Assembly (NCBI RefSeq): GCF_013409345.1
Contig: NZ_JACCBB010000001.1
Coordinates: 4,340,001-4,404,000, forward strand
Direction: 5' to 3'
Length of the DNA stretch: 64,000 nt
From: Kineococcus aurantiacus
GTDB lineage: Bacteria > Actinomycetota > Actinomycetes > Actinomycetales > Kineococcaceae
Shown here: in pieces, positions 1,534 to 45,218 of the stretch
How positions within the stretch are numbered: the first letter of the stretch is position 1
How the letters are laid out: each line of letters opens with the position of its first letter
The notes under the pieces: generated by a model
Database searches by the model: none
What the model was told of the DNA's origin: nothing
The model's input: only the letters and a program-made list of their open reading frames with translations
Program-made: the position numbers and the translations under genes

Positions 1534-1545
1534 TCCGGGGTCGCC

Positions 1546-3090: not shown

Positions 3091-3097
3091 GATACCC

Positions 3098-3160
3098 ATG
3101 AGGTTCCAGCCCGGCCCGCGGACCGCTCCCCCTTCCTCGTCGCCGGAAGGTGGCCGGTGA
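3098..3160 (+). CDS. 20-codon candidate leader peptide, translationally coupled to the next gene
   Basis: ATG-initiated 20-residue ORF (MRFQPGPRTAP then PSSSPEGGR) ending at TGA 3158-3160. Its stop overlaps the GTG start of the next gene as GTGA, the coupling arrangement used repeatedly in this genome. The ATG sits 7 nt after a TAGAGT box, so the mRNA could begin at this start codon. The peptide is Pro/Ser-rich with no Trp, His or Leu run that would suggest classic attenuation. It may simply bring ribosomes to the downstream GTG. Coding status is unproven because the ORF is very short. Confidence 0.4.
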   Translation: MRFQPGPRTAPPSSSPEGGR

Positions 3161-4563: not shown

Positions 4564-4593
4564 GCAGCCCTGGCATCCGGTCGGTGCCGTTCT

Positions 4594-6551: not shown

Positions 6552-6635
6552 GGCAGCACCCTATGCGCTCATCGTTGCGGAAGGGAAGCGAGTGACTACT
6601 GAGCGCAATGGCCGGTCGTCCGCCAGAATGGTGTG
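6552..6635. promoter_or_regulatory. Divergent promoter region with two leaderless-type -10 boxes
   Basis: An 80-nt divergent spacer. On the minus strand TAGGGT stands 6 nt before the ATG at 6551. On the plus strand CAGAAT (6624-6629) stands 6 nt before the GTG at 6636. Both fit transcription starting on the start codon. The -35 boxes are not obvious. Confidence 0.45.
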
Positions 6636-7712
6636 GTGACCGCTCGACCGGCTCGTGCGCCCTTCCTCAGCGCGGTGCTCATCGTCCGCGACGAGGTGCA
6701 CCGGGTCGGTGAGTGCCTCGACGCTCTGCCCGGCTTGGCCGACGAGATCGTCGTGCACGACACCGGTTCCACTGACGGCACGCTCGAGGAGCTGCACCGG
6801 CGGGACGTCGTCCTGGTCGAGGGGGCCTGGCGAGACGACTTCGCCGCCGCGCGCAACACCGCGCTCGCCGCTGCTCGGGGCGAATGGGTCCTCAGCCTGG
6901 ACGCCGACGAAGTCGTGAGCGCCGATCCTCGCGCCCTGCGGGCTCACCTGGACAGCGGTGGTCCTCCGCGACGGCTCGTCACCATTCTCAACGAGGAAGT
7001 CCCACCCGCCGGGGGTTACTCCTTCACCGCGGTGCGCCTCTTCAGGAGGGATGGAGCCAGGTGGAACGGGCGGCTCCACGAGCGGATCCTGCACGAGCGT
7101 GACCCGGAGGCTGAACCCGCACTCGTGCCCCCTGCCGTGCTCAGTCTCCACCACTCGGGTTACTCGACCCCGGAGGCGCTTCGACGCAAAGGAGAGCGCA
7201 ACGCCGTCCTGGCTCGACGGGCCCTCGACGAACTGCTCGTCACGCCGGGAGTCGATCCTCGTGCGGTAGCTGACGTGGCCCTCGACCTGGGACGTGCGCA
7301 CATGGGGGCGGGGCAGTTGCAACGAGCGGTCGAGGTGTTCGAAGCAGTGCGCGACGCCGAGGCCGACGGACGCTCCTGGCAGCGGGCCACCGACTACCTG
7401 GCCCGGCTTCTGCTCGGTGCAGGGCAGCCGGATCTCGCGCTCGGCCTCGCGGAGCAACTGCGAGCGCGGGGAGCGGGAACGAAGCACTGCGACTGGCTGC
7501 GTGCGCAGGCGCTGGCGCAGCTGCGACGCCCTGGTGAGGCGCTGGAGGCTTTGGCCCACGTCGACCAGCTCGTCGATCTGGACGGCCGGATTCGCGGGAC
7601 CGAGGCGGTCCGTGAACTGCGTTCACTCTGTCGTGAGATGCAGCTGGCTCTGCAGCGTGCGGCGGGCGCTCCGGTCACCCATCGAGTGAGTCCTCCCGTT
7701 CAAGAACCTTAG
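6636..7712 (+). CDS. Family 2 glycosyltransferase
   Basis: A 358-residue GT2 enzyme with AVLIVRDEVHRV, HDTGSTDGTLEEL and the acidic motif DADEVV after GEWVLS, and an R-L-H-E (GRLHERILH) element as in the tandem pair at the left edge. It is shorter than those, with a reduced helical tail. The GTG at 6636 is preferred over the in-frame GTG at 6633 because it sits 6 nt after CAGAAT. No ribosome-binding site is visible. It is followed after 10 nt by a second glycosyltransferase in the same direction, so an operon is likely. Substrates are unknown. Confidence 0.8.
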   Translation: MTARPARAPFLSAVLIVRDEVHRVGECLDALPGLADEIVVHDTGSTDGTLEELHRRDVVLVEGAWRDDFAAARNTALAAARGEWVLSLDADEVVSADPRALRAHLDSGGPPRRLVTILNEEVPPAGGYSFTAVRLFRRDGARWNGRLHERILHERDPEAEPALVPPAVLSLHHSGYSTPEALRRKGERNAVLARRALDELLVTPGVDPRAVADVALDLGRAHMGAGQLQRAVEVFEAVRDAEADGRSWQRATDYLARLLLGAGQPDLALGLAEQLRARGAGTKHCDWLRAQALAQLRRPGEALEALAHVDQLVDLDGRIRGTEAVRELRSLCREMQLALQRAAGAPVTHRVSPPVQEP

Positions 7713-7722
7713 GAGTGCAGTC

Positions 7723-9810: not shown

Positions 9811-9843
9811 CGTCCGGCGCCGGGGAAACGGTGCGTGGACGAT

Positions 9844-11013
9844 CTAGGTCCGGGTGCGCTCCAGCGCGCTGATGAGACCGCTGGCCACGCGTTCCACGCT
9901 GCGCCGGCTCATGTGCAGGTGCAGGGGTAGGGTCAGCAGCGCGTCAGTCGCCCAATCGGAGTTGGGGAAGTCCCCGGGAAGCTTTTCCTGGTAGTACGGG
10001 TGCTGGTTGACGCCAACGTAGTGCACCGCCGCGCCGATGTTCTGACCGCGAAGCTCATCGAGGACCTGGTCACGGCGCCCGGTGGGTCCCTCGATGATCA
10101 CTTGGTAGAGGTGCAGGGCGTGACGGTGGTTCATCGTCGGCCGGCCGCGATCGACGATCCGGACGCCTGGGAGATCGCTGATGAGTTCGTCGTAGCAGTC
10201 GGCGAGGAACTCCCGGCCGGCGAGGAAGCCCTCCAGCTTGTGCAGCTGGCCGAGGGCGATGGAAGCCTGGAGGTCGGTGAAGTTGTACTTGAATCCCGGG
10301 TAGGTCGCCAGGGTGGGCTGGAAGGTTCGAGTCCGGTACCTGGCCCAGGCGTCGCCGTCGAGTCCGTGCAGTCGGAGCGACTTCAAGCGCTGTGCGGTCT
10401 CGGGATCGGCCAGTGAGATCGCCCCTCCTTCGGCAGTGGCCAGGTTCTTGTTGGGGTAGAAGCTGAAGCACGTCAAAGAACGGGGATTTTGGGCGTTGCC
10501 CACCCGCGCTCCGTCATGCACCGCACCCAGTGCGTGAGCGGCGTCTTCGACGACGACCAGGTCGTGCTCCTCCGCCAGCCGGTAGATCTCGCTGAGCCCT
10601 GCAGCGCGCCCTGCGAAGTGGACCGGCACCACGGCGCGGGTTCGGCTGGTGAGAGCGCCCTCGATCGATTCTGCCGAGATGGAGAAAGTGTCGCGGTCGA
10701 TGTCCACGAGGACCGGGGTGGCGCCCGCGTGTTCGATGGCGTTGACGGTGGCGACGAAGGTGAACGGCGTGGTGATGACCTCGTCACCCGGACCAACACC
10801 CATCGCCACCAGAGCCAGGTGGAGGGAGGCGGTGCAGGAACTGGTGGCCACGACGTGTGGTGATCCCAGGTACTGGGCGAGTTCCTCTTCGAAACGCTGT
10901 ACCAGGGGACCCTGGCCGATCCACCCGCTACGAAGGGTCTGCACGAGGAGTTCTTCCTCCTCGTGGTCGAACCAGGGCTGCCCGAAGATGATCGGCGAGG
11001 GGTGGTACGTCAC
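9844..11013 (-). CDS. DegT/DnrJ/EryC1-type sugar aminotransferase (PLP)
   Basis: A 389-residue PLP enzyme of the family that aminates keto-deoxy nucleotide sugars. Visible features are IIFGQPWFDHEEEELLVQTL at the start, SGWIGQGPLVQRFEEELA, the cofactor region ATSSCTASLHLAL, VVEDAAHALGA with the pyridine-nitrogen Asp, and FSFYPNKNLATAEGGAIS carrying the Schiff-base lysine. The length is normal. The GTG start overlaps the stop of the formyltransferase gene (GTGA), so it is translated second in a two-gene operon. Aminotransferase plus N-formyltransferase is the pairing that makes formamido-deoxy sugars for O-antigens and flagellar glycans. The exact sugar is not determinable. A longer open frame to 11118 is rejected. 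Confidence 0.88.
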   Translation of the reverse strand: MTYHPSPIIFGQPWFDHEEEELLVQTLRSGWIGQGPLVQRFEEELAQYLGSPHVVATSSCTASLHLALVAMGVGPGDEVITTPFTFVATVNAIEHAGATPVLVDIDRDTFSISAESIEGALTSRTRAVVPVHFAGRAAGLSEIYRLAEEHDLVVVEDAAHALGAVHDGARVGNAQNPRSLTCFSFYPNKNLATAEGGAISLADPETAQRLKSLRLHGLDGDAWARYRTRTFQPTLATYPGFKYNFTDLQASIALGQLHKLEGFLAGREFLADCYDELISDLPGVRIVDRGRPTMNHRHALHLYQVIIEGPTGRRDQVLDELRGQNIGAAVHYVGVNQHPYYQEKLPGDFPNSDWATDALLTLPLHLHMSRRSVERVASGLISALERTRT

Positions 11014-11960
11014 CGCAACATCATCCCTTCGTGGAGGAAGCGCTTCATTTCTTCCCCTGAGCGCATGGCATCCCCGTCCCTCCACGTCTCGATGCGCAAC
11101 AGCCCCGTGGAGGTCCACACGAGTGGCCCTTTGCCGTGGGGTAGCTCCACGCTGCCGGGCGGACGGCTGCCGAGGTCGGCCGATGGCTCCACGGACTGCA
11201 CGCGTTCCAAGATCACGCGTTCGGCGCCCGCGATCACGTACGCTCCCGGGAACGGGTGGGCAAGTGCCCGGACGATGTTGCGGATCCGGTGGCTGGAATC
11301 CTTCCAGTTCAGGTGGTTCAACCGCGCGTCCGCGCGGCCGTGGTAGCTCGGTTCATGGTGCCCGACCTCCTGGTTCGGGAGGGGGCGGCCCGTGAGGAGG
11401 TCGTTCAGGAGGTCGGCTGCCATGCGGTGCACCAGGCGGGTCGCCTTGCGGTGCAGGTCGAAACCGGTGTCCTCGTGGTGGATGGGGAAGGGCTTCCGGG
11501 CGATGGGGGCACCGGTGTCGATGCCCTCGTCGATGTGGTGCGCGGTGACTCCCGCCATGGCGTCACCCGAAACGATCGCCCAGATGAGCGGAGCAGTACC
11601 TCGGTGCCGCGGCAGGAGGGCCGGGTGGAAGTTGATCTTGGGCCCTCTGATGGCAGCGAGGAAGGGTGCTTTGAAGATCTGCGTGTAGTAGACGGACAGG
11701 AGGAGATCGGCGTCGTGCTCGCGCACTGCGGCGATGGTGGACGGGTCGTTCACGTCTGCAGGTTGCAGGCACCGCACGCCGGCTGCGTGGGCCGCGTCAG
11801 CCAGAGAAGGTTGCCACTCGTGCTTCGAGCCTTCAGTGGGAGCGACCGCGAGCACGGACCCCGCGTCCAGGCGTTCCAGGAGGAGGCGCAGCACCTCGAT
11901 GGCTGGGCTGTTGTTACCCGCCAGGACGACCTTACGGCCCGTAAAAGCCATGTTACGCAC
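11010..11960 (-). CDS. Formyltransferase family protein, probably sugar N-formyltransferase
   Basis: A 316-residue member of the methionyl-tRNA/GART formyltransferase fold. The catalytic signature is present: INFHPALLPRHRGTAPLIWA gives the Asn and His, and HHIDEGIDTGAPI gives the Asp. Because it is coupled to a DegT aminotransferase, N-formylation of an amino sugar from 10-formyl-tetrahydrofolate is more likely than fMet-tRNA synthesis. The C-terminal part (HLNWKDSSHRIRNIVRAL) matches the OB-fold region of ArnA/Fmt-type enzymes. Start choice: GTG 11960 lies 6 nt after CAATCT (leaderless type); ATG 11951 is the alternative. No ribosome-binding site is seen for either. Confidence 0.83.
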   Translation of the reverse strand: MRNMAFTGRKVVLAGNNSPAIEVLRLLLERLDAGSVLAVAPTEGSKHEWQPSLADAAHAAGVRCLQPADVNDPSTIAAVREHDADLLLSVYYTQIFKAPFLAAIRGPKINFHPALLPRHRGTAPLIWAIVSGDAMAGVTAHHIDEGIDTGAPIARKPFPIHHEDTGFDLHRKATRLVHRMAADLLNDLLTGRPLPNQEVGHHEPSYHGRADARLNHLNWKDSSHRIRNIVRALAHPFPGAYVIAGAERVILERVQSVEPSADLGSRPPGSVELPHGKGPLVWTSTGLLRIETWRDGDAMRSGEEMKRFLHEGMMLR

Positions 11961-12168
11961 GGTAGCAGATTGAATCGTGGGGTGGACGTGGTGAGAGTCC
12001 GTTCCTCAGCATCAGCGGCAACGACCACTTGATCCCGAGCTACGACGCCGTCGACCACCGAAGCTAGCTCGCGCGCCAGGTGCTGCACCTCGGCGCTGCT
12101 CCAGTACCAGCGGCGCCACTCGCTCTCCTGCGCGGGACGCGTGGCGAGCGGCCGCTTACGATCGACAC
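11961..12168. other. Divergent spacer with an open frame of unknown meaning
   Basis: A 208-nt region between divergent genes. On the minus strand a frame stays open across it and reads [20 protein letters not shown] before running into the formyltransferase gene out of frame. The aromatic-rich composition looks more like coding remnant than spacer, but there is no credible start. On the plus strand TACGAT (12157-12162) is 6 nt before the GTG of the acyltransferase gene, a leaderless-type promoter. Confidence 0.35.
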
Positions 12169-13320
12169 GTGGAATGCGCCGTCGTCCTCGTCGCGGACAC
12201 GCCTATCGAAACCGTCGTGGCGTCGATCACGGCGCTAGCGGAGGCGATCGACGTCCTGGAAGAGGAGCGCCACGCAGTCACCACGGTCATCGTCGACACG
12301 TCCGCCGACCCGCGTGTCACAGGCTTCCTCGACAGGCTCGAAGGTGCGCGCGTGCTCCGGCTCCCTGGAGCCACCCGAGCCCAGGCCCTCATCGCTGGTG
12401 CGGAGGTCGCCCGAGGCGAGGTCGTCTGGTTGGGGGTGAGCGATTCAGCCCCCAGGCCCTCCGCGCTGTCGGTCCTCGTGGACGCCGTGGGGCGCGGCTT
12501 GAGCATGGCCCTGGCAGCCTCCTCGGATCCTGCCCCCTACGCCGCCCTGGCGGCGGACGCCCTCCCGCTCCTCGAGAAGCTGAGCCTCGAGGCGACGATT
12601 GACACCGACGCTGTGCCCGAGCTCGTCACGCGGTGCCTCCGAGCGGATCTCGCAGTCGCTCGAGTTGCCGGCGCGGGGTGCGTCAGTGCGCGGTCCCGAA
12701 CGCCGCGGGACATCGGCGCGAGCATGCAGGTGGTGCCCGGGAAGTTCACTGCGGGGCCAGGCTCCTACAGCAGCCCCAGTACGCTGATCAAGTCCTACGC
12801 GCCGCTCGATGAGATCGAAGTGGGGGCGTACTGCTCCATCGCGGACGAAGCGCGGATCATCTTGCCCGGCGGGCGAGTCTTCGCGGCTGACGGCCGCGAG
12901 ATCCCTCTCGTGCAACGGGGGGTGCACCGCATGCGGTCCGCCTCCACCTTCCCCATCGGCATCCTGGTGCCGGACGTCCCCTACGACGATCCCCCGGATG
13001 GCGCCGTGGGCGAGCGGCTGGTCGTCGGGGACGACGTCTGGATCGGGTACGGCGCCCGGATCATGGGGAACGTCGTGATCGGGACAGGGGCGGTCATCGG
13101 TGCAGGGGCGCTGGTCGTCAGGGACGTTCCCCCCTATACGGTCGTCGGAGGAGTTCCCGCCCGGGTGCTGCGACCACGGTTCGACGACGCGACGGTCCAG
13201 CGCCTCCTCGCCGTCTCGTGGTGGAACTGGCTGCAACCGTTCGTGACGGGGGCTCACCAGTGGTTCCGGCGTGACGTCGCGGACTTCTTGCGGCACTTCG
13301 ACCCGGCGGGTGAGTCGTAG
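12169..13320 (+). CDS. Degenerate GT2 domain fused to left-handed beta-helix acyltransferase
   Basis: A 383-residue fusion. The C-terminal 200 residues are a hexapeptide-repeat O- or N-acyltransferase of the xenobiotic acetyltransferase/CatB type: [52 protein letters not shown] and [12 protein letters not shown]. Insertions near a Met/Arg/Phe-rich loop fit the trimeric active site. The N-terminal 150 residues follow a GT2 outline ([19 protein letters not shown], then [16 protein letters not shown]) but lack the DxD, so they probably bind and do not transfer. Acetylation of the amino sugar made by the neighbouring aminotransferase is a plausible role. The GTG start lies 6 nt after TACGAT with no ribosome-binding site. 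Confidence 0.75.
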
Positions 13321-22558: not shown

Positions 22559-23500
22559 GTGACCGCCGTCTGGTTCGCAGCACTGGCGCTGCTCCTGGCC
22601 GGACCCGTCCCGGCCCTGCTGGCCCGCGCCCGCTGGACCTGGCAGGTGCCGCGCGCCGCCCTCGTGCTGTGGCAGTCCATCGCCCTGGCCGCCGTCCTGG
22701 CGACCCTCGGCGCCGGGCTGGCCTCCCTGTCTCTGCTGTTCACCGAGGAACCCGGCTTCCCCTTCCTCGAACGGCACGGCCCCGTCCAGACGACCCTCAT
22801 CGGGCTCGGCTCGACCCTCGTCGCCGTCGTCACCGTCCGCTTCTGGGTCGTGGCCACCCTCGTCGGCATCCGCACCCGCCGCCGCCGCAACCGCCACCGC
22901 GAGATGGTCGACCTGCTGCACCGCAAGGAGTCCACCTCCGAGGTCGACGCCGCCCTGCTGGCCCAGACCGGTGTCCGCGTCCTGACCGGCCCCGGCCGCG
23001 TCGCCTACTGCGTCCCCGGCGTGCGCGCCCGCGTCGTCGTCTCCGACGCCATGCTCGACTCCCTGACCCCCGAGGAGGTCCGCGCCGTCCTGGCCCACGA
23101 GCGGGCCCACCTGCGCGCCCGCCACGACCTCGTGCTGGAGGGCTTCACCGCCCTGCACGCCGCCTTCCCCCGCGTCGTCTCCAGCCAGGCCGCCCTCGAC
23201 TCGGTGCGGCTGCTCGTGGAGATGCTCGCCGACGACTCCGCCCGCCGGCGCACCGGCTCCCTGCCGCTGGCCCGCGCCCTGGTCGCCCTCGCGGGCCAGC
23301 CCGACGCGGGCGGCGGGGTGGAGTCGGAGATGCCCGTGGGCTCGGCGGCCCTGGCCCGCGTGCGCCGCCTGGCCGCCCGGCCCGCCCCCCGGGGGTTGTC
23401 GGTGGCCGTCTACGCCGCCGCCGCCGTCGTCCTGGGCGGGCCCACCCTGGCCGTCGCCGTGCCCTGGCTGCAGGCCAGCTACCGCGCGCTGGCGGGCTGA
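22559..23500 (+). CDS. M56-family membrane metallopeptidase (BlaR1/MecR1-like, no sensor domain)
   Basis: A 313-residue integral membrane protease with three or four N-terminal hydrophobic segments, a cytosolic zinc-protease domain with HERAH at residues 180-184, and a C-terminal hydrophobic segment ending WLQASYRALAG. It lacks the extracellular penicillin-binding domain of BlaR1, as is usual for actinobacterial homologues, so the signal it senses is unknown. It is paired with BlaI just upstream, the expected repressor target. Its end overlaps the convergent GNAT gene by 22 bp. Confidence 0.88.
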   Translation: MTAVWFAALALLLAGPVPALLARARWTWQVPRAALVLWQSIALAAVLATLGAGLASLSLLFTEEPGFPFLERHGPVQTTLIGLGSTLVAVVTVRFWVVATLVGIRTRRRRNRHREMVDLLHRKESTSEVDAALLAQTGVRVLTGPGRVAYCVPGVRARVVVSDAMLDSLTPEEVRAVLAHERAHLRARHDLVLEGFTALHAAFPRVVSSQAALDSVRLLVEMLADDSARRRTGSLPLARALVALAGQPDAGGGVESEMPVGSAALARVRRLAARPAPRGLSVAVYAAAAVVLGGPTLAVAVPWLQASYRALAG

Positions 23501-24543
23501 GGCACCCGGCGCGCACCCACCGGCGGGACCCGGTCCGGCGCCGGCCGGTCCAGGCACAGGCGCGACTCGAAGCGGCTCACCGCGAGCAGCGTCTCCGGGG
23601 CCACCCCCGTCATCCAGTCCACGACCTGCACCCCCGGGCTGGCGAAGGCGTGCTCCAGCACCGCGTGCTCCAGCAGCCGGCCGGGGGAGTACCGCGCCCA
23701 GCGCGTCACGAACCGGCCCTCGAAGATCCCGTAGCGGGGGCCCCCGGGCACGCCGACGACGTACGCGGCCAGCTCCCCGTCCAGGCGCAGCTCGGCCAGC
23801 TCCCGGCGGCCCAGCTCACCCAGCGCCTCCAGGCGCGAGCGCCACGTGCGCCGGCCCTGCGGGGTGTCCAGCGCGCACGCGATGCCGTGGACGGTGTCGC
23901 GGTCGCGGTAGGCCACCTCCAGCTCCGGCACCGCCGCTGCGAAGGCCGCCGGGTCGGTGCTGATGCGCAGCTCGACGTCCACGCCGTCGGTGCGCAGCCG
24001 GTTGGCCGTCTTGCGCAGGTTCTTGCGCATCCCGGCGCTGACCAGCGCCTCGCCCTCACCGGGGCGCACGACGACCGGCACCGGGTCCAGCGCGCGCACC
24101 CGCGCGCCCGCGCCGGCGGCCAGCGCCCGGACCAGCGGGTCGTCGGGCAGGTCCTCCAGCCGCAGCGCCGTGCCCCGGCGGTCGGCCTGCGCGGCCAGGG
24201 CGGCCCCCAGCGCGCGGGCCGCCCTCGGGGAGGCGGCCAGGACACCGGCCTCGTAGCCGTCGCCACCGGTGAGCAGCCGCGTGGAGGTCCCGTCGTCGTG
24301 GACGTCGTCGCGCAGGACGGCCAGCGCCTCCACCCGCCCGGCGCTGCGCAGCTGCACCGCCCACAGCGAGGCCGGTGGTGCCCCGGCCGAGGCCGCGCGC
24401 ACCCAGGCCGGGGAGGCGGTCGCCGCGGTCGGCGAGGGGGCACCGGACGCGTGCACGGCCTCGCGCACGGCCTCGGGGCCGGTCAGGACGTGCACGTCGC
24501 GCTGGGCGGGCACGGTCGGGGTCAGGGTCCAGGTGAGGTTCAC
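23479..24543 (-). CDS. GNAT-family acetyltransferase (Acetyltransf_6/CelD-like)
   Basis: A 354-residue protein with a double GNAT-like fold. The C-terminal half shows KNLRKTANRLRTDGVDVE, YRDRDTVHGIACA, LRLDGELAAYVVGV and RYSPGRLLEHAVLEHAF, a pattern shared with the CelD/BcsL and FemAB-like acyltransferase group. Substrate unknown; polysaccharide or cell-wall modification is the common theme of that group. The GTG start overlaps the stop of the GGDEF-EAL gene (GTGA), so the product is probably made together with a c-di-GMP enzyme. Confidence 0.72.
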   Translation of the reverse strand: MNLTWTLTPTVPAQRDVHVLTGPEAVREAVHASGAPSPTAATASPAWVRAASAGAPPASLWAVQLRSAGRVEALAVLRDDVHDDGTSTRLLTGGDGYEAGVLAASPRAARALGAALAAQADRRGTALRLEDLPDDPLVRALAAGAGARVRALDPVPVVVRPGEGEALVSAGMRKNLRKTANRLRTDGVDVELRISTDPAAFAAAVPELEVAYRDRDTVHGIACALDTPQGRRTWRSRLEALGELGRRELAELRLDGELAAYVVGVPGGPRYGIFEGRFVTRWARYSPGRLLEHAVLEHAFASPGVQVVDWMTGVAPETLLAVSRFESRLCLDRPAPDRVPPVGARRVPQPASAR

Positions 24544-26882
24544 GAGAGAGGTCCAGGCGTCGCAGGGGCGGGGACGAGAGCGGGAACGGGATCGGGGACG
24601 GGAGCGGGGACGAGGGCGGGGACGGGGACGTGCTCGAGCAGCCAGCGGTCCAGCGCGTCGGCGGGCAGCGCCTTGGCGTACAGCCAGCCCTGCAGGACGT
24701 CGCAGCCGGCCGCGGCCAGCTCCCGGCTGGTCTCCTCGTCCTCGACGCCCTCGGCGACCAGGCGCAGGCCCAGGGAGTGGGCCAGCACGATCGTCGAGCG
24801 GACGATGGCCAGGGCCCGCGGGTCGCCCACGAGGTCGGTGAGGAAGGACTTGTCGAGCTTGAGGTCGTCCAGGGGGAGCTGGCGCAGGTAGGCCAGCGAG
24901 GAGTAGCCGGTCCCGTAGTCGTCCACGGCCACCCGCACTCCGCGCCGGCGCAGGCCCTCGAGGATCACCTGGGCGCGCTCGCGGTCGGCCATGAGGAAGT
25001 CCTCGGTGATCTCGATCTCGAGCAGGTGGGCGGGCAGGCCGCGGGCGGTGAGCAGGTCCTGGACGCGGTCGGGCAACCGGGCGTCGCCCAGGGAGGAGGC
25101 CGACAGGTTGACCGCGACCGCCAGCGGGCGGCCGGCGCGCCACCACCGGGCGGCCTGGTCCAGGGCCTGCTCCAGCACGGCGCGGGTGAGGTCCTCCATC
25201 AGCCCGGCGGCCTCGACGACGGGGAGGAAGGCGTCGGGGAACAGCAGGCCCCGCCGGGGGTGCTCCCAGCGCACGAGCGCCTCGACGCCGTGCACGAGGC
25301 CGGTCGCGACGTCCACCTTGGGCTGGTAGTGCAGCAGCATCCGCCGCGCGGCGATGTCGGAGCGCAGCAGCTCGGCGGTCTCCAGGCGCTCCCCGGAGGC
25401 GAACTCGTCGACGTCGGGGGAGTAGGCGAAGCTGCCCAGCTGCCGCGCCTTGGCGTGGTACATGGCCACGTCGGCCTGGCGCAGCAGCGTGGTCAGCTCC
25501 GCGGTCCCCACCGGCAGCACCGAGACGCCGATGCTGCCGCGGGTGCGGACGTGGACACCCTCGAGGTCGTAGGGCTGGTGCAGGGCCTCGTGCAGCGCCG
25601 TGGCCAGCTCCAGCGCCTCGTCCGTGCCCACGCCCGCGCGGACGACGGCGAACTCGTCGCCGCCCAGGCGCACGACGACGCTGCGCGGGCTGTGGGCGAT
25701 CTCCCGCAGGCGGCGGGCGACGTCGCGCAGCAGGGCGTCCCCGGCGTGGTGCCCGAGGCTGTCGTTGACCTCCTTGAACCCGTCGAGGTCCAGCAGCAGC
25801 AGAGCCACGTGGTCGTCCCCGTCTGACCCCGCCAGCAGCTGCGGCGTGCGGCCGTACAGGGCGCGGCGGTTGCCCAGCCCCGTGAGCTCGTCGGTCTGCG
25901 CCAGCTCGCGCTGCTCGGCCAGGCGCGTGACCTCGCGCAGGGTGAACAGGAGCCGGGCCAGCGCGCTGAGCACGGTGGCCGCGGCGACCGCGATGGCGAC
26001 CGGGTGCAGCGGGTAGCGGTGGTCGACGACCAGGACGCCCAGGGCGGCCGCGGTGGCCAGCACGGGGATGGACAGCAGCGCCCAGGCCGGCAGCCGCGGC
26101 CCGGTCGGCGCCGAGGTCCAGCCGGGCGTCAAGCCCATGAGCACCACCCCGGTGACCCAGACGCCGTCGGTGAGCCCGCCGGAGACGTAGGTGCCGGTGG
26201 CCGTGGAGAACAGGTACGCCACGTCGGCGACGACGAAGACGACCAGCCCGGCGGCCAGCAGCCACAGCCCCTTGGGGGGGCGCCAGCCGAACAGGGCCAG
26301 CACGGCCGCCAGGACCATGAGCAGCACCAGGTCCAGGGCCGGGTAGGCGGTGGTGGTGGCGACCGCGGCCCAGGAACCGGTCGTGGCGACGATGGGGCCG
26401 ATGACCGCGGCGGCGGCGACCGCCCCGACCGCCAGCGCCCCCACGACGCCGTCGAGCCACAGGCTGCGGGCGTGGCGGGCGTCGCGGCCCTTGGCCAGCA
26501 GGATGAGGGCCACGAAGACGAGCGGGTAGAAGAGCAGGAAGCCCACGTCCGCCCCGGAGGGGTAGGGCTGGTCGGGCAGCGGCCGCACGAAGGCGGTCCA
26601 GAACACGTTGCCGGAGCCGTAGACCGCCAGCGCGGCGGTCAGCAGGTACCCGCCGCGGCGCGGGCCGTCGTGGCCCAGCGTGCGGACCAGGCACAGCGCG
26701 GCGGCGGCTTCGTAGGCGAGGTTGTTCAGCAGGCCGTCCAGCGCGAAGGAGTACCCCGCGTGCGGGCGCACGCCCGGCAGCGTCGAGAGCACGAAGGCCG
26801 CCGGGAACAGCAGCAGCAGCACGTGCGCCGCGCGCTGGGCGCGCGCGGGCAGCACCAGACGGTGCTGTGCGGTCGGTTCCAC
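24540..26882 (-). CDS. Membrane GGDEF-EAL protein (c-di-GMP turnover)
   Basis: A 780-residue protein. Residues 1-320 contain about eight to ten hydrophobic segments. A diguanylate cyclase domain follows, with TDELTGLGNRRAL, DLDGFKEVNDSLGH and an intact RLGGDEFAVV near residue 405. The phosphodiesterase domain then has EALVRWEHP near 530, EITEDF, DDYGTGYSSLAYLR and AEGVEDEE. Both catalytic cores look complete, so the net activity cannot be predicted. A Pro/Val/Ala repeat tail ends the protein. GTG 26882 is chosen because GGAGG lies five bases upstream. The frame upstream to 27911 overlaps the EamA gene and is rejected. Confidence 0.88.
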   Translation of the reverse strand: MEPTAQHRLVLPARAQRAAHVLLLLFPAAFVLSTLPGVRPHAGYSFALDGLLNNLAYEAAAALCLVRTLGHDGPRRGGYLLTAALAVYGSGNVFWTAFVRPLPDQPYPSGADVGFLLFYPLVFVALILLAKGRDARHARSLWLDGVVGALAVGAVAAAAVIGPIVATTGSWAAVATTTAYPALDLVLLMVLAAVLALFGWRPPKGLWLLAAGLVVFVVADVAYLFSTATGTYVSGGLTDGVWVTGVVLMGLTPGWTSAPTGPRLPAWALLSIPVLATAAALGVLVVDHRYPLHPVAIAVAAATVLSALARLLFTLREVTRLAEQRELAQTDELTGLGNRRALYGRTPQLLAGSDGDDHVALLLLDLDGFKEVNDSLGHHAGDALLRDVARRLREIAHSPRSVVVRLGGDEFAVVRAGVGTDEALELATALHEALHQPYDLEGVHVRTRGSIGVSVLPVGTAELTTLLRQADVAMYHAKARQLGSFAYSPDVDEFASGERLETAELLRSDIAARRMLLHYQPKVDVATGLVHGVEALVRWEHPRRGLLFPDAFLPVVEAAGLMEDLTRAVLEQALDQAARWWRAGRPLAVAVNLSASSLGDARLPDRVQDLLTARGLPAHLLEIEITEDFLMADRERAQVILEGLRRRGVRVAVDDYGTGYSSLAYLRQLPLDDLKLDKSFLTDLVGDPRALAIVRSTIVLAHSLGLRLVAEGVEDEETSRELAAAGCDVLQGWLYAKALPADALDRWLLEHVPVPALVPAPVPDPVPALVPAPATPGPLS

Positions 26883-26959
26883 GTCCACCTCCAAGGTCAC
26901 AGGAGGGATCGGTTGCGCTGAGCCAACGCTCGACCCGCCGAACGGGTGGTGGGCGTTCC

Positions 26960-27799
26960 TCAGAGCGCGGTCAGGACGGCGCCGACGAGCACGAGGCAGA
27001 CCGCCACGACCTGCACCCGGGTCAGCCGCTCGCCGTGGAAGCGCCGCGCCAGCAGCACCGTGACGGCCGGGTACAGGGACGCCAGGACGGACACGACGCT
27101 GACCATCCCGCTCCCGGAGGCCACGGCGAACGCCGCGGTGGCGGCGAGGTCGAGGAAGCCCAGGGCCAGCAGGACCGGCAGGTCCCGGGCCTGGACGGGG
27201 CCGCTGCCGCGGCGCCCCGCGACGGCGGCGGCGACGACGAGGACCACCGACGTCAGGCGCATCGCCAGCAGCGACCCGGCGACCGAGGACTCGCTGCCGC
27301 GGGCCAGGGCGAAGATCTCCACGCCGAACAGCAGCGCGGCCAGCAGGGCCAGCCACACCGCCGACGAGGGCTGCTTCGCGGTGGGCGACAGCTCCGGGCC
27401 GGCCACCCCGACGACCCCGACCAGCGCGAGCGCGGCGCCGAGGACCGCGAGCGCGCCGGGCCGCTCGCCCAGGGCGAGCCCGGCGGCGAAGGGCACGAGC
27501 ATCCCGCAGGAGGCGATGGGCGCGACCACGCCCATGGTGCCGCGGGCCAGCGCCGTGTAGAGGGCGGCCATCGCCCCGGCCCACGTCACCCCGGCGAGCA
27601 CCGACCAGCCCAGCCAGCCGCCGGCCGGCAGCCGGCCCAGCTGACCGGAGCCCGCGAGGACGGCCAGCAGCACGAGGGCCGACAGCACCTGGGAGACGGC
27701 GAGGACCTGCACGGCGCGCAGGCGCCGGCTGACGCTGCCGCCGAGGAAGTCCGAGGACCCCCACAGGACGCTGGCCAGCAGGGCCAGCCCGGCGCTCAC
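26960..27799 (-). CDS. EamA/DMT-family transporter
   Basis: A 279-residue membrane protein with about ten hydrophobic segments in two similar halves, opening SAGLALLASVLWGSSDFLGG, as in drug/metabolite exporters of the EamA type. The substrate is unknown. The GTG start is preceded by GGGAG. It lies upstream of the GGDEF-EAL gene with about 75 nt between, possibly the same transcript. Confidence 0.85.
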   Translation of the reverse strand: MSAGLALLASVLWGSSDFLGGSVSRRLRAVQVLAVSQVLSALVLLAVLAGSGQLGRLPAGGWLGWSVLAGVTWAGAMAALYTALARGTMGVVAPIASCGMLVPFAAGLALGERPGALAVLGAALALVGVVGVAGPELSPTAKQPSSAVWLALLAALLFGVEIFALARGSESSVAGSLLAMRLTSVVLVVAAAVAGRRGSGPVQARDLPVLLALGFLDLAATAAFAVASGSGMVSVVSVLASLYPAVTVLLARRFHGERLTRVQVVAVCLVLVGAVLTAL

Positions 27800-27956: not shown

Positions 27957-28541
27957 CTACTGCTGCAACAGGTACAGCTCCAGCTGCACGACCCCGGCCT
28001 GCGGGGACTGGGCGTTGACCGCGCGCCAGAAGTCGCGCTTGGCCGAGCCGGTGAAGACCCCCGGCGCCGCCACGTCGAGCTGGGCGTTGACGCGGCGGGC
28101 CAGGGCGGTCCCGCTGCCGGGGTCGCCGGAGGTCCCGAAGGTCAGGACGAACGCGGCGTGCCGGCCCTGGGCGGCCAGGTCCTGCACGGCGGCGGCGACC
28201 GAGGCGCGGATCGCCTCGTCGGAGGAGCTGTCCACGTCGACCTGCAGCACCACGGGGGCCTGCGCGACGCCCGCGGGCATCGAGGGCACCGGCGCGGGGG
28301 CGGTGACCGTCACCGTCGGGACGGGCGTGGGGCTCGGGACGGGGGCCGGGGCGGTGGGGGCCACGGTGGCCGCGACGGCCCTCTGGTCGTCGGCGCCGGC
28401 GTGCACGGCCCCGCCGGCCGCCAGCCCGATGATCGTCAGGGCCAGCAGCGCGTCGGCGAAGACCCAGCCGGCCAGGCCGACGGTGGCGTTCTCCCGGCGG
28501 CCGCCGAGCGCGCCGCGGACGCGGACCGCGGGGCGCCTCAC
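27957..28541 (-). CDS. Small MotB-like protein with Asp-bearing membrane helix
   Basis: A 194-residue protein. One membrane helix near residues 22-42 carries an Asp at position 30 in VFADALLALTIIGLAA, which resembles the proton-channel helix of MotB (in this window YADMLTVLMAL with Asp at 29). A Pro/Thr/Val linker of about 50 residues follows, then a periplasmic alpha/beta domain containing TFGTSGDPGSGTALARRVNA and ending VVQLELYLLQQ. This loosely recalls an OmpA-like fold, but the peptidoglycan-binding residues are not recognisable. The GTG overlaps the stop of the coiled-coil gene (GTGA). I infer a stator-like partner; no characterised family is assigned. Confidence 0.6.
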   Translation of the reverse strand: MRRPAVRVRGALGGRRENATVGLAGWVFADALLALTIIGLAAGGAVHAGADDQRAVAATVAPTAPAPVPSPTPVPTVTVTAPAPVPSMPAGVAQAPVVLQVDVDSSSDEAIRASVAAAVQDLAAQGRHAAFVLTFGTSGDPGSGTALARRVNAQLDVAAPGVFTGSAKRDFWRAVNAQSPQAGVVQLELYLLQQ

Positions 28542-30646
28542 TGGCCGACCCGGGCGTAGCGGCGGGCGGCCAGGTCCTGCAGGGTGCGGGGCGCGACGGC
28601 CACGAACTGCTCCTCGACCTCGGGTTCGGGGCGGGCCTCGGGGCGGGGCTCGGGGGCGCGGACCACGCGCCGGGCGGGTTCGGGCCGCACGTCCTGGCGC
28701 ACGTCCTGGCGCACCTCGGCGCGGGCCTCGGGCCGGGGTTCGGGGCGCGGGTCGGGGCGGCGCTGGGGGGCGACGGGGGCCGTGCGCTGCTGCTGACGGG
28801 CCGAGGCGATCGCGATGCGCTCGGGCAGCGTGTCGACCTGGTGCGAGAGCTGGCCCATGACCTGGTCGACCACGGTGCCCAGCTCGTGGCCCAGGGTCTG
28901 GGTCAGGTCCTGGGTCAGGGTGCGGGAGGCGTCGCGGTAGGCCCGGTTGACCTGCCGGACGTGGTCCTCACCGGCCATGGCCAGGGTCTGCGCCACGACC
29001 GCGGAGACGTCCTCGCGCAGCGTCGAGCCGATGCTGCGCAGCGCGCGGCCGGTGGCGTCGGCGTGCTCGTGCTGGACCTTCTCCAGCCAGCGCGGCACCG
29101 AGCGCATGTCGTGCGCGGCCTCGACCAGGCGGTTCTCGATGCCCCGCCAGGAGTCCAGGACCTCGTTCTGGGTGGCCAGCAGGTCGGCCAGGCGCTCCTC
29201 GTGCCGCACGCGGCGGTCGGCGGCCTCGGCCGCGGTGGCCAGGACGTGGGTCGCGGTGCCCAGGGCGGCCTCGGCCGCCTCGGAGGTGCGGGCGACGTCG
29301 CGGCGCAGCGTCTCCATGGTCTGCGCGGCGTGCTCGGCCGAGGCCGAGACGTGCTCGCTGAACGCCTCCCCGGTCATCGTGGTGACCTGCTGGACGCTCT
29401 CGACGACGGTGGCGTGCATCGTCTCCACCGACTCCCGGGCCGTCGTCGACAGCGCCGCGACGTGACCGGTGACGGCCTCGCCGAAGTCGGCGGAGTGCCG
29501 GCTCATGGTCGCCGCCGCGGTGGACAGCTCGGTGATGGACTCGCGGGTCTGGGTGGACAGGGCCTCGACCGCCGAGGAGACGCCCTCGACGGCGGACAGG
29601 ACCCGGTCGCGGCCCTGCAGGCCCTCGCGCAGCGCCTCGGCGGTGCCGGCGCGGACCTGCTCCAGGTGCTCGCTGAGGGTCGCGGTGGACTCGGCCAGGG
29701 TGCGGGTGTGCTGCTCGCGGTCGGCGGCGATGAGCGCGCCGTGGGTGCTGACGGCCTCGGTGACGGCGCCCTGCAGCTGCGTCGCGGCGCGCGCCACGTC
29801 GGCGCCGCCGGTGTTGGCCAGCTCGGCGGCGGTGATGGCGTGCTGGGCCGAGGCCCGCACGGTCGCGACGAGCTCGCTGGTGTCGGCGTGCAGCCGGATC
29901 GTCTCGGAGACCAGGCGCCCCAGCTCGGTCAGGCCGCGCTCGAAGTGCGCGCCCAGCTGCTCGGCGGCGTTGCTGCGGAAGGGCGCCAGCGCCAGCGTGG
30001 CGCGGGCGGCGAAGGCGCGCAGGACGGTCCGGTGGGACTCGTCGGCGTGCGCGGCGGCGAGGTCGTCGACGCGCTGGCGGCGGTCGGTGGCCACGGCCGC
30101 GACGATGGCCGCGGAGATCAGCAGGACCGCCAGCTCGGCGACGCGGTCCAGGGAGAAGAAGGTGCGCCCGCCGAAGCCGTCGAGCCACAGCTGCAGGAAC
30201 GACTCGCCGCCGTCGGCCTCACCGGCGCGGCTCATCGCCCCGTAGGCGCGGCCGGCGAACAGCAGGCCGATCCAGGTGACCATGATCGGGGCGAAGACCA
30301 GGACGGTGCGCAGCGACCCCGAGCGCAGGAGGCTGCGGCGCTGCTCCAGCGGCGCCGTGGCGGCGTCGGTGTCCAGCAGCTGGAACAGGTCCGCGTCGGC
30401 CCACCGGCCCAGCCGCCCGTCCTCGCCGTCGGCCTCGGCCCGCACGGAGCCGGCCAGCTCGCGCAGCACGTCGGCGCGGTGCGCGCACGGTTCGCCCGCG
30501 GCGAGCCGCTCGGCCTCGGCGGCCAGCCGGGGCAGCTCGCCCGGGGTCACCGGCGTGGTCCCCGGCGTGGTCCCCGGGTCGGTGGAACGTTCGGCGTCGT
30601 CCATGGTGGCGGCGGTGTCCTTCTCGTCAGGCGTCTCGTCGGTCAT
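28538..30646 (-). CDS. Membrane-anchored long coiled-coil protein, partner of the MotB-like protein
   Basis: A 702-residue protein. The acidic N-terminus is followed by two hydrophobic segments at about 112-133 (TVLVFAPIMVTWIGLLFAG) and 168-187 (VAELAVLLISAAIVAAV). About 400 residues of Ala/Glu/Thr-rich heptad-like helix come next, resembling a chemoreceptor signalling stalk or the cytoplasmic tail of ZorA. The C-terminus has an Arg-Pro-Glu repeat. There is no methyl-accepting hairpin tip motif. A sigma-28-like promoter stands at 30703-30678, so the GTG at 30673 would lie before the RNA start; ATG 30646 is preferred. Function is unknown; co-regulation with flagellar genes is inferred. Confidence 0.6.
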   Translation of the reverse strand: MTDETPDEKDTAATMDDAERSTDPGTTPGTTPVTPGELPRLAAEAERLAAGEPCAHRADVLRELAGSVRAEADGEDGRLGRWADADLFQLLDTDAATAPLEQRRSLLRSGSLRTVLVFAPIMVTWIGLLFAGRAYGAMSRAGEADGGESFLQLWLDGFGGRTFFSLDRVAELAVLLISAAIVAAVATDRRQRVDDLAAAHADESHRTVLRAFAARATLALAPFRSNAAEQLGAHFERGLTELGRLVSETIRLHADTSELVATVRASAQHAITAAELANTGGADVARAATQLQGAVTEAVSTHGALIAADREQHTRTLAESTATLSEHLEQVRAGTAEALREGLQGRDRVLSAVEGVSSAVEALSTQTRESITELSTAAATMSRHSADFGEAVTGHVAALSTTARESVETMHATVVESVQQVTTMTGEAFSEHVSASAEHAAQTMETLRRDVARTSEAAEAALGTATHVLATAAEAADRRVRHEERLADLLATQNEVLDSWRGIENRLVEAAHDMRSVPRWLEKVQHEHADATGRALRSIGSTLREDVSAVVAQTLAMAGEDHVRQVNRAYRDASRTLTQDLTQTLGHELGTVVDQVMGQLSHQVDTLPERIAIASARQQQRTAPVAPQRRPDPRPEPRPEARAEVRQDVRQDVRPEPARRVVRAPEPRPEARPEPEVEEQFVAVAPRTLQDLAARRYARVGQ

Positions 30647-30677
30647 CCGGTGGGACGGGTGGATCGCTGCCACCTAC

Positions 30678-30703
30678 CTCGGCGGGACCGGCCGGGACCT
30701 TGA
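30678..30703 (-). promoter_or_regulatory. Sigma-28-like promoter of the coiled-coil/MotB-like pair
   Basis: On the minus strand TCAA (30703-30700), 16 bases, then GCCGAG (30683-30678), with CTCAAGG around the -35 exactly as in the flagellar promoters of this window. Transcription would start near 30668, leaving a leader of about 22 nt before ATG 30646. Confidence 0.6.
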
Positions 30704-30965
30704 GGGCCTGGATGGGCCGGCCGTGGGTCACCCGTCCGGCCCAACCGGTGGACGCGCGGTGAGCGGCGCGGCCGCGGCCGCGGGCGCGCGCCGGACGCCG
30801 GCGGGGGACCGGACGGGGGAGGGGACGGTGCCGTCCCCGCCCGCGAGGGGCAGCCGGCGCTGACCCTGCGTGAGGTCCGGCCGGCCGGTACCGCCGTCCG
30901 GGTGACGGTGGTGACCGCGACGGGGGGATCGCCGCCGAACCGTGCTGCTGCGCACCGGTCGGGGC

Positions 30966-30991
30966 TCAAGGACCCACCCCCGTGGGCCGAA
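30966..30991 (+). promoter_or_regulatory. Sigma-28-like promoter of the flgB operon
   Basis: TCAA (30966-30969), 16 bases, GCCGAA (30986-30991). The predicted leader to flgB is about 85 nt. It probably drives flgB through fliK. Confidence 0.65.
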
Positions 30992-31086: not shown

Positions 31087-31437
31087 GTGTCCGATCTCAC
31101 CAGCGTCGCGCTGCACACCGCGTTGAACGGTCTGCAGGCGCGCCAGCGGGCCATCGCCGACAACATCGCCAACATCAACACCAAGGGCTACCTGGCCAAC
31201 AAGGTGCAGTTCGAGGACGCCCTCGCCAGCGCCGTCGCCGGCGGTGACGCCCGGGCGGCCGCGAGCACCGGCATCGCCACGAGGAAGTCGCTGGAGCCGA
31301 CCCGCGAGGACGGCAACAACGTCAACCTCGACGAGGAGACGATCTCCAACATCTCGACCAACCTCAGCTACCAGACGGTGCTGGGCGCGCTGAACTCCAA
31401 GTACTCGATGCTGCGCACCGCGATGAGCAGCCAATGA
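31087..31437 (+). CDS. flgB: Flagellar basal-body rod protein FlgB
   Basis: A 116-residue proximal rod subunit with the N-terminal rod motif NIANINTKGYLANKVQFEDAL and a C-terminal amphipathic helix. GTG start behind GGAGGGTGG. It is first in a long operon (flgC, fliE, fliF and onward) behind a sigma-28-like promoter. It has no Sec signal, as expected for a substrate of the flagellar export apparatus. Confidence 0.95.
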   Translation: MSDLTSVALHTALNGLQARQRAIADNIANINTKGYLANKVQFEDALASAVAGGDARAAASTGIATRKSLEPTREDGNNVNLDEETISNISTNLSYQTVLGALNSKYSMLRTAMSSQ

Positions 31438-43407: not shown

Positions 43408-44181
43408 ATGGACTTCGCAACCCTCGGCGGCCTCATCATCGCCGCCGCCGCCATCCTCTGGGCGCAGAACCACGAGGGCGGTGCGGTCACCGACATCCTG
43501 CTGCCCGGCCCCCTCGTCCTCGTCTTCGTCGGCACCATCGGCGTCGGCTTCATGGGCGGGATCCTCAAGGACGGCCTCGGCTCGATCAAGCAGCTGCAGA
43601 AGGCGTTCCTGGGCAAGCCGAAGAACTCCGCGGAGACCGTCTCCGTCATCGTCAAGATGGCCGAGCGCGCCCGCCGCGAGGGCCTGCTGGCCCTGGAGGA
43701 CGCCATCAAGGAGGTCGACGACCAGTTCCTGCGCGACGGCCTGCAGACCGCCATCGACGGCACCGACCCCGACGAGCTGTACGAGATCCTCACCGCCCAG
43801 ATCCAGGCGAAGAAGGCCGCTGACAAGCAGGCCGCGAAGATCTTCGGCGACATGGGTGGCTACGCCCCCACCGTCGGCATCTGCGGCACCGTCATCTCCC
43901 TCACCGTCGTCCTGGCAAACCTGTCCGACGCCGCGGCCCTGGGCCCGATGATCGCCGGCGCGTTCGTCGCGACCCTGTGGGGCGTGGCCGCCGCCAACTT
44001 CTTCTTCCTGCCCGTCCAGTCCCGCCTGCAGCGCCTCTCGGGCCTGGAGACCGCGCAGATGGAGCTCGTCGTCGAGGGCATCCTCGCCATCCAGGCCGGC
44101 TCCAACCCGCGCTCGGTGGCCAAGAAGCTCGAGAGCCTGCTGCCCCCGGGCACCGCGGTCCCGGACAAGAAGGCGGCCTGA
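43408..44181 (+). CDS. motA: Flagellar stator protein MotA
   Basis: A 257-residue four-helix membrane protein that with MotB forms the ion-driven stator. Visible: N-terminal helix FATLGGLIIAAAAILWAQ, cytoplasmic loop with DAIKEVDDQFLRDGLQ, and helices 3-4 from GGYAPTVGICGTVISLTVV to FFFLPVQSRLQRL. ATG start, stop overlapping motB by one base. Confidence 0.95.
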   Translation: MDFATLGGLIIAAAAILWAQNHEGGAVTDILLPGPLVLVFVGTIGVGFMGGILKDGLGSIKQLQKAFLGKPKNSAETVSVIVKMAERARREGLLALEDAIKEVDDQFLRDGLQTAIDGTDPDELYEILTAQIQAKKAADKQAAKIFGDMGGYAPTVGICGTVISLTVVLANLSDAAALGPMIAGAFVATLWGVAAANFFFLPVQSRLQRLSGLETAQMELVVEGILAIQAGSNPRSVAKKLESLLPPGTAVPDKKAA

Positions 44182-45218
44182 TGTCCGCAGCGCACAAGCG
44201 GCGCCACAAGCACGAGGAGCACGAGGAGCACGTCAACCACGAGCGGTGGCTGGTCTCCTACGCCGACATGCTGACGGTCCTCATGGCGCTGTTCATCGTC
44301 CTGTTCGCCCTCAGCCAGATCGACCAGCTGAAGTTCGCCCAGTTCAAGGACGGTCTCAGCAAGGGGACCCCCGACAGCAACCAGGCGGTCTCCGGCGCCT
44401 CCGGCGTCATGGACGTCACCAACGGCAACTCGGTCGTCCAGGTCTCGCCGTACTCCACCGGTGAGCAGCTGAACACCTCCTCCGAGCAGGTGCAGCAGAT
44501 CCTGCAGTCGGCGCAGACCGCGCAGAAGGCCAAGGACCTCAACGCCGCCAAGGAGGAGGTCCAGGACTACCGCGAGATCGAGAAGAAGATCGACGCGGCC
44601 CTGACCGAGAAGGGCCAGCAGAACCAGGTGACCTACCGGATCACCGCCGACGGCCTGGTCGTGGGCCTGGTGGCCGACAACGTCTTCTTCGCCAACGCCT
44701 CCGCCGACGTGGAGACGACGGGCCAGGAGGTCCTGGACACCATCGCGCCGATCCTGGCGCAGCTGCCCAACGACATCGCCGTGCAGGGTCACACCAACAA
44801 CCTGGCCCTCAACGGCAACGCCCGGTACCGCGACAACTGGGACCTGTCCTCGGCCCGGGCCAACACCGTGGTGACGCGGTTCATCTCCCACGGCATCGCC
44901 CCGGTCCGGCTGTCCGGCACCGGCTACGCCGACTCCCGGCCGCTGTACCCGGACGAGGACCCCAAGGCCCTGACCGGCAACCGCCGCGTCGACCTGGTCG
45001 TCGCCTCGCCCAGCTCCGACGCCGTCAAGGCCCTGCTGCCGGAGGTCGCGCAGCAGACCGCCACCGGCGACGGGCCGGCGGAGCTCACCGGCACCACCGA
45101 CACGCACACCGACGGCACCACCACCGGCACCGACAGCACCACCGACGGCGCCGGAGCAGCGACCAGCGACCTCTCGGCCGGCATCGCGCCGGACCTGGCG
45201 AGCAACGTCGCCCACTGA
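44181..45218 (+). CDS. motB: Flagellar stator protein MotB
   Basis: A 345-residue protein with the ion-carrying Asp29 in SYADMLTVLMALFIVLFAL, a plug/linker region, and a C-terminal OmpA-like peptidoglycan-binding domain (NDIAVQGHTNNLALNGNA, RVDLVVASPS). A Thr/Gly/Asp-rich tail closes it. It anchors the stator to the wall. Start ATG overlaps the motA stop. Confidence 0.95.
   Translation: MSAAHKRRHKHEEHEEHVNHERWLVSYADMLTVLMALFIVLFALSQIDQLKFAQFKDGLSKGTPDSNQAVSGASGVMDVTNGNSVVQVSPYSTGEQLNTSSEQVQQILQSAQTAQKAKDLNAAKEEVQDYREIEKKIDAALTEKGQQNQVTYRITADGLVVGLVADNVFFANASADVETTGQEVLDTIAPILAQLPNDIAVQGHTNNLALNGNARYRDNWDLSSARANTVVTRFISHGIAPVRLSGTGYADSRPLYPDEDPKALTGNRRVDLVVASPSSDAVKALLPEVAQQTATGDGPAELTGTTDTHTDGTTTGTDSTTDGAGAATSDLSAGIAPDLASNVAH

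What the first reader, a model, noticed from the sequence alone, without database searches (positions are those of the whole stretch)
27957..30703. Possible new stator-like module: long coiled-coil membrane protein plus small Asp-helix MotB-like protein under a flagellar promoter
Two genes overlap by four bases. The first has two membrane helices and about 400 residues of coiled coil. The second has one membrane helix with Asp30 in VFADALLALT, matching the YADMLTVLMAL helix of MotB in position and pattern, then a periplasmic domain. This is the design of MotAB, ExbBD and the ZorAB part of Zorya, but no ZorC/D/E genes are near and a sigma-28-like promoter stands ahead. A proton-driven device with a long cytoplasmic tail that is expressed with flagella would be new.
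Basis: partly seen in the sequence, partly recalled or inferred. Interest (0 to 1): 0.72.

Follow-up and report, generated by a model that had tools for sequence, protein, structure and literature searches.

The report
Zorya-like membrane pair in flagellar regulon
Kineococcus bacteria carry, next to their flagellum genes and under the flagellum's own on-switch, a two-protein membrane device that resembles ion-driven motors and whose relatives elsewhere sit mainly among anti-virus genes, so a defence-type machine seems to have been recruited to the swimming stage.

Summary
Two minus-strand genes overlapping by 4 bp (A, 28538-30646; B, 27957-28541) encode a two-helix membrane protein with a ~370-residue helical cytoplasmic tail, and a one-helix protein with Asp30 inside the helix. 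No Pfam family recognises them. Nine of 11 Kineococcus genomes have the pair, always divergent from flgB. A CTCAAG-N15-GCCGA promoter stands on both sides of that intergenic region (A side 8/9 exact, flgB side 9/9); the same motif precedes fliA, a fliC copy, fliQ and chemoreceptors, so the sigma-28 claim is supported. Twelve distant actinobacterial loci and one Chloroflexi MAG carry the same A-B order with the helix Asp invariant. B's profile aligns this Asp with those of TolR/ExbD and MotB. All 12 non-Kineococcus actinobacterial carriers lack FlhA, and 8 of 12 lie beside conflict or defence genes (BREX, DISARM, Hma, GAP1-N2/DO-GTPase, vWA-PP2C-kinase). So the family is not flagellar in origin: it is a Zorya-like, probably ion-driven pair recruited into the motility regulon in Kineococcus. 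A is not shown homologous to MotA/ExbB, structure models were poor, and ion flow, 5:2 stoichiometry and function remain inferred.

The parts
28538..30646 (-). Gene A: two-TM membrane protein (702 aa from ATG 30646; 711 aa if GTG 30673) with an N-terminal cytoplasmic helical region, TM hairpin carrying the FxPxxxTW motif, long helical/coiled-coil cytoplasmic tail and Pro/Arg-rich C-terminal end
27957..28541 (-). Gene B: single-TM protein (194 aa), AGWVFAD30ALLALTIIGLA helix, Pro-rich linker, C-terminal alpha/beta domain (93-194)
28538..28541 (-). 4-bp GTGA overlap of A stop and B start (suggests translational coupling)
   Evidence: overlap or close adjacency kept in the distant loci
30679..30704 (-). 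Sigma-28 (FliA)-type promoter CTCAAG-N15-GCCGA of the A-B operon
   Evidence: (8/9 genomes exact, 1/9 TTCAAG)
30965..30990 (+). Divergent sigma-28-type promoter upstream of flgB
   Evidence: 9/9 exact
31087..31437 (+). flgB, first gene of the flagellar operon, divergent from A-B
   Evidence: PF00460; synteny in all carriers
43408..45218 (+). Canonical motA (43408-44181) and motB (44181-45218): the regular stator, a positive control for the family searches
   Evidence: PF01618, PF13677, PF00691

Best explanation
A-B is a divergent, so far unnamed actinobacterial membrane pair built like the ion-driven MotAB/ExbBD/ZorAB machines. Several A subunits (five by analogy) would form a membrane ring whose long helical tails bundle into a cytoplasmic rod. 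Two B helices would sit in the ring with Asp30 as the ion-binding site, and B's outer domain would hold the cell wall. Ion flow would turn or tilt the A tail and pass force or a signal to a cytoplasmic partner. Elsewhere the pair belongs mainly to conflict/defence gene clusters. In Kineococcus it stands under the flagellar sigma factor, divergent from flgB, so it is made with the motility apparatus (in K. radiotolerans, that of motile zoospores). SHOWN: gene pair, overlap, topology pattern, invariant Asp, promoter conservation, synteny, lack of FlhA in the other carriers, defence contexts. INFERRED: ion flow, 5:2 assembly, wall binding, movement of the tail, and the role in the motile stage (motility accessory or a guard against phage).
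For: Pair order A then B is kept in all 9 Kineococcus carriers, 12 distant actinobacterial loci and a Chloroflexi MAG. In 17 aligned B proteins six of the ten invariant columns (A24 G25 W26 A29 D30 L33) lie in the membrane helix. B vs TolR/ExbD P 1e-4 and vs MotB P 2.4e-3 with the Asp in register; reversed controls 0.07-0.1. A keeps a Pro and a Thr inside TM1 (F-x-P-x3-T-W) in 16 diverse sequences, a candidate for the Ser/Thr ring described around ZorB's Asp (PMC11890865). Conserved sigma-28-type promoter in 9/9 carriers and the same motif at fliA, fliC, fliQ, MCPs; FliA-type sigma present. 0/12 other carriers have FlhA against 11/11 Kineococcus. Neighbours: BrxHI, BrxD, PglZ-tail, DrmD, DrmMI (L042); BrxHI, BrxD, PP2C, vWA, HmaA (L044); HmaA plus helicase (L048); GAP1-N2 and DO-GTPase2 (L046), DO-GTPase2 (L053); vWA and PP2C (L047, L043, the latter with kinase and Hsp70).
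Against: No significant sequence match of A to MotA/ExbB/ZorA membrane parts. ZorA HMM hits lie in the coiled coil only, where composition can explain them. B has no Pfam MotB_plug, ExbD or OmpA hit. AF2 models are of low confidence (pLDDT 48 and 51) and Foldseek found nothing significant. No complex prediction or co-variation test was possible. Four loci from small (1.3-1.5 Mb) genomes show no defence neighbour. Two Kineococcus genomes (G002, G009) have FlhA but no detected pair, so it is not essential for having flagella.
Confidence: 0.6

Rival explanations
1. A-B is a phage-defence device (Zorya-like) that Kineococcus makes only in the motile stage, for instance against phages that use the flagellum or pilus as receptor; its nuclease partner is encoded elsewhere or is not needed.
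For: Relatives sit among BREX, DISARM, Hma and GTPase-centric conflict genes; the Kineococcus A clade groups with the defence-linked f35/f37 proteins (97/97); long coiled-coil tail as in ZorA; sigma-28-type control ties it to flagella and pili.
Against: No helicase or nuclease gene recognised near it in the window; vertical conservation and fixed synteny in all 9 carriers, unlike the patchy turnover of defence genes; not found on phage or plasmid records.
Confidence: 0.25
2. A-B is an accessory or second stator that drives or brakes the flagellum itself.
For: Sigma-28-type promoter and position divergent from flgB in all carriers; Asp helix in register with MotB.
Against: Canonical motA-motB are present; A lacks the MotA_ExbB domain; two flagellated Kineococcus genomes lack the pair; 12 of 12 other carriers have no FlhA.
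Confidence: 0.25
3. A-B is a passive membrane scaffold: A is a coiled-coil organiser and B an anchor, without ion flow.
For: Only B's helix shows a profile match to known proton-channel families; A has none; the GldL tail has been proposed to anchor to the cytoskeleton (PMC9389320).
Against: An invariant acidic residue within the membrane helix, in the most conserved part of the protein over two phyla, is not expected of a plain anchor.
Confidence: 0.15

Closest known systems
Zorya ZorAB (type I/II)
   Same: Two genes A-B; B with one helix, an Asp and a C-terminal outer domain; A with a long coiled-coil cytoplasmic tail; distant members lie beside helicases, methylases and other defence genes
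   Different: No detectable homology in the membrane part of A; ZorA HMMs match only the tail; no ZorC/D/E recognised beside the Kineococcus pair; sigma-28-type control; A predicted with two TM helices
Flagellar stator MotAB
   Same: Asp in the B helix in register with MotB D32, [FY]AD motif; outer domain after a linker; expressed with flagella in Kineococcus
   Different: No MotA_ExbB, MotB_plug or OmpA domain by Pfam; A has two TMs instead of four and a long tail; the same genome has canonical motAB; other carriers lack flagella
ExbBD / TolQR
   Same: Best profile match of B's helix (P 1e-4, Asp aligned); A upstream of B
   Different: Actinobacteria have no Gram-negative outer membrane system to drive; A not detectably homologous to ExbB/TolQ; long tail
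GldLM (gliding / type 9 secretion)
   Same: Precedent for a 5:2 motor without obvious sequence homology to MotAB, with a long cytoplasmic tail on the A-type subunit (PMC9389320)
   Different: Bacteroidota; GldM has four periplasmic domains; no sequence comparison made here
GAP1-N2 / DO-GTPase conflict systems (Kaur et al. 2020, PMC7159879)
   Same: Homologous pairs sit inside or beside such clusters (GAP1-N2, DO-GTPase2, vWA-PP2C-kinase, Hsp70)
   Different: The paper's text names TM-bearing components but no MotA- or proton-channel-like pair; Kineococcus has the pair without these partners

Membership tests
MotA/TolQ/ExbB (PF01618) for A | Pfam MotA_ExbB domain | tested here: not met
   Not among the hits at E<=1 of 16 members; the window's real MotA hits at 3e-27
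MotA/TolQ/ExbB (PF01618) for A | Profile similarity of the TM region | tested here: not met
   hhalign P 0.3 (TolQ/ExbB), 0.42 (MotA); reversed controls 0.08 and 0.49; only two-sequence reference profiles were used
MotB/ExbD/TolR for B | Membrane-helix Asp as ion site | tested here: met
   Asp30 invariant in 17/17 plus L041; aligned with TolR D23/ExbD and MotB D32. Ion binding itself not testable
MotB/ExbD/TolR for B | Pfam MotB_plug, ExbD or OmpA domain | tested here: not met
   Not among the hits at E<=1 of 17 members; the window's MotB hits both MotB_plug and OmpA
MotB/ExbD/TolR for B | Peptidoglycan-binding (OmpA-like) fold of the outer domain | tested here: inconclusive
   AF2 strand-helix-helix-strand model at pLDDT ~48; Foldseek lists SiiA and MotB periplasmic domains but at E 1.9-6
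Zorya | ZorA/ZorB homology in the membrane core | tested here: not met
   PADLOC ZorA hits only to the coiled coil; no ZorB hit
Zorya | ZorC/D/E effectors adjacent | tested here: not met
   No such hits among ten window genes tested; the genes right of A-B are flagellar
Zorya | Long coiled-coil cytoplasmic tail on the A subunit | tested here: met
   ~370 residues with helical periodicity, helical in the partial AF2 model
5:2 ion-driven motors (works like) | Five A around two B | not testable with these tools
   No complex prediction on hand
Sigma-28 (FliA) regulon | Promoter motif shared with known flagellar and chemotaxis genes and conserved across species | tested here: met
   FliA_WhiG sigma over cut-off

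The most novel reading that the evidence does not exclude
A defence-type, ion-driven membrane motor family, unrecognised by current domain libraries, was recruited once into a flagellar regulon and now works with the motility machinery of actinobacterial zoospores (as a force transducer, brake or stage-specific guard), an evolutionary bridge between Zorya-like defence motors and motility.
Probability: 0.4. Interest if true: 0.82.

Novelty: new variant of a known kind. Interest (0 to 1): 0.66.

Why it matters
If true, ion-driven membrane motors are wider than the MotAB, ExbBD/TolQR, GldLM and ZorAB set, and a family found mainly in conflict clusters has been taken over by the flagellar sigma factor in one genus. 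That gives a natural test of what a Zorya-type tail does when no nuclease is beside it, and a lead to an unknown component of actinobacterial motility. It also supplies an unannotated membrane module for several actinobacterial conflict systems (BREX/DISARM neighbours, Hma, GAP1-N2 GTPase systems).

Tried and rejected
Pfam, NCBIfam and PADLOC scans of the pair: nothing significant beyond the ZorA coiled coil; weak fvmX2 hits (best E 3e-5, 3 of 16 A fragments; below that family's cut-off for the window fragment) were not taken as membership. First protein hits outside the genus (L010-L016) were Pro/Thr-rich false positives and discarded. PDB sequence search: nothing. AF2 of A core and B with only 4-5 sequences: low confidence; Foldseek results not used as evidence. 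Loci from the genome search/get_from_genomes were not handed to the structure tool because its stated rule does not list them. Viral contigs, phage and plasmid collections: no relatives. A phylum-wide search with A5 found no new carriers (only six candidates per genome were scored, so sensitivity was limited). Two genome-search requests failed. The motif with N16 and one mismatch is not above chance in the window; N15 is the informative spacing. The genome-wide motif count in the window's own genome (25 against 19 for the backward control) is not a strong excess; the argument rests on position and cross-species conservation.

Full report
OBSERVATION. Gene A (window 28538-30646, minus strand; the upstream GTG at 30673 gives 711 aa) and gene B (27957-28541, minus) overlap by GTGA. 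A has two strongly hydrophobic stretches (about 121-145 and 174-197) and B one (20-46). Arg-rich ends predict N-in/C-out for B and both ends inside for A (direct reading of the sequence). A's tail from about 240 to 610 has very few Pro and helical hydrophobic periodicity; a Pro/Arg-rich end follows.

CONSERVATION IN THE GENUS. The pair occurs in 9 of 11 Kineococcus genomes (genus name from the record titles). In all of them A-B is divergent from flgB, followed (as far as the contigs reach) by flgC, fliE, fliF and fliG. B's helix AGWVFADALLA(L/M)TIIGLAAGGAV is invariant apart from one Leu/Met in the eight full-length B proteins. G002 and G009 have FlhA but no pair was detected in them; both are draft assemblies. 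The K. radiotolerans genome paper lists flgB as Krad1647 in its table of motility genes and lists nothing from 1629 to 1646, so the pair's position is passed over there (PMC2587704).

PROMOTER. CTCAA-N14-18-GCCGA occurs 5 times in the window against 0.54 expected. In 9/9 carriers CTCAAG-N15-GCCGA (one A-side TTCAAG) precedes both A and flgB, with unlike spacer sequences. The same motif with 14-16 bp spacing precedes the FliA-type sigma gene and one fliC copy, fliQ in the window, two chemoreceptors, a PilT gene, a prepilin-like gene and GGDEF/EAL-type genes. The genome encodes FliA/WhiG-type sigma factors over the curated cut-off.

DISTANT RELATIVES. A profile of A's core found 12 loci in four other families of the class and one in a Chloroflexi MAG. 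In each, a B-like gene directly follows A. Over 17 B proteins the invariant columns are A24 G25 W26 A29 D30 L33 P82 G136 A148 F163; with L041 added the Asp stays invariant. Over 16 A cores, F, P, T and W of an FxPxxxTW motif in TM1 are invariant. The A tail varies from a few tens of residues in some small f44 genomes to about 370 in Kineococcus.

RELATION TO KNOWN MOTORS. B's profile matches TolR/ExbD (P 1e-4) and MotB (P 2.4e-3), with Asp on Asp; reversed controls give 0.07-0.1. A gives no significant match, and no relevant Pfam domain is hit, while the window's own MotA and MotB are recognised. PADLOC ZorA hits are confined to the tail. AF2 with 4-5 sequences was poor (pLDDT 48 and 51) but shows, for A, a TM hairpin whose second helix runs straight into the cytoplasm and, for B, a helix followed by an alpha/beta domain. 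Foldseek gave nothing significant. So 'works like' is plausible; membership is not shown for A and only helix-deep for B. GldLM is a precedent for a 5:2 motor without obvious sequence homology (PMC9389320). Work on ZorAB shows that the Asp packs against Ser/Thr residues of the ring and that the tail is needed for function (PMC11890865).

CONTEXT ELSEWHERE. FlhA is absent from all 12 other actinobacterial carriers. Neighbours within 10 kb: L042 BrxHI, BrxD, a PglZ-like tail, DrmD, DrmMI; L044 BrxHI, BrxD, PP2C, vWA, HmaA; L043 vWA, PP2C, kinase, two Hsp70; L045 methylase and UvrD-type helicase; L046 GAP1-N2 and DO-GTPase2; L047 vWA and PP2C; L048 HmaA and a DrmD/DpdE-type helicase; L053 DO-GTPase2 and a type I restriction system. 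These match the GTPase-centric conflict systems and BREX/DISARM-type islands of the literature; the eLife 2020 text contains no mention of MotA or proton channels (PMC7159879). The four small-genome loci (L049-L052) show no such neighbours. In a tree of A cores the Kineococcus clade groups with the f35/f37 proteins (97/97).

CONCLUSION. The best reading is an unnamed, Zorya-like, probably ion-driven A-B pair whose family lives mainly in conflict clusters and which Kineococcus holds in its flagellar regulon. Shown: anatomy, Asp conservation, promoter, synteny, FlhA absence elsewhere, contexts. Inferred: ion flow, 5:2 assembly, wall anchoring, force or signal output and the role in the motile (zoospore) stage. 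Whether that role is motility proper or a stage-specific defence is open; I weigh them about equally.

Noticed in passing
L107, L108, L119 and window 30704-30679: The sigma-28-type motif also precedes type IV pilus genes (PilT, a prepilin-like gene) and GGDEF/EAL-type genes, so flagella, pili and c-di-GMP genes seem to share one regulon in Kineococcus.
   Followed up: partly
L132:13581-16451: Three tandem, nearly identical flagellin genes; an exact CTCAAG-N14-GCCGA motif was found only before the third.
   Followed up: no
window 1-13320: A run of glycosyltransferase-like and sugar aminotransferase-like genes, with two near-identical copies at 1-1533 and 1546-3075, lies between the fliC-fliS group and flgB; possibly flagellin glycosylation.
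   Followed up: no
L044 and L048: A-B homologues lie close to HmaA-type SNF2 helicases, and in L044 also BrxD/BrxHI and vWA-PP2C genes: a candidate unannotated membrane module of these conflict systems.
   Followed up: partly
L049-L052: Small genomes (1.3-1.5 Mb, about 46-50% GC) keep a mostly short-tailed A-B pair, in L050 and L052 near a response regulator and a histidine-kinase-like gene, without flagella or defence neighbours.
   Followed up: no
L024 / L040 (K. indalonis draft contig) 2558-5599: A and B are joined in one frame without B's membrane helix; probably an assembly collapse in a 1060-contig draft, not a true fusion.
   Followed up: no
window 23479-27799: GNAT, GGDEF-EAL and EamA genes lie between B and the next conserved genes in only some Kineococcus species, so this spot is variable while A-B and flgB are fixed.
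   Followed up: no
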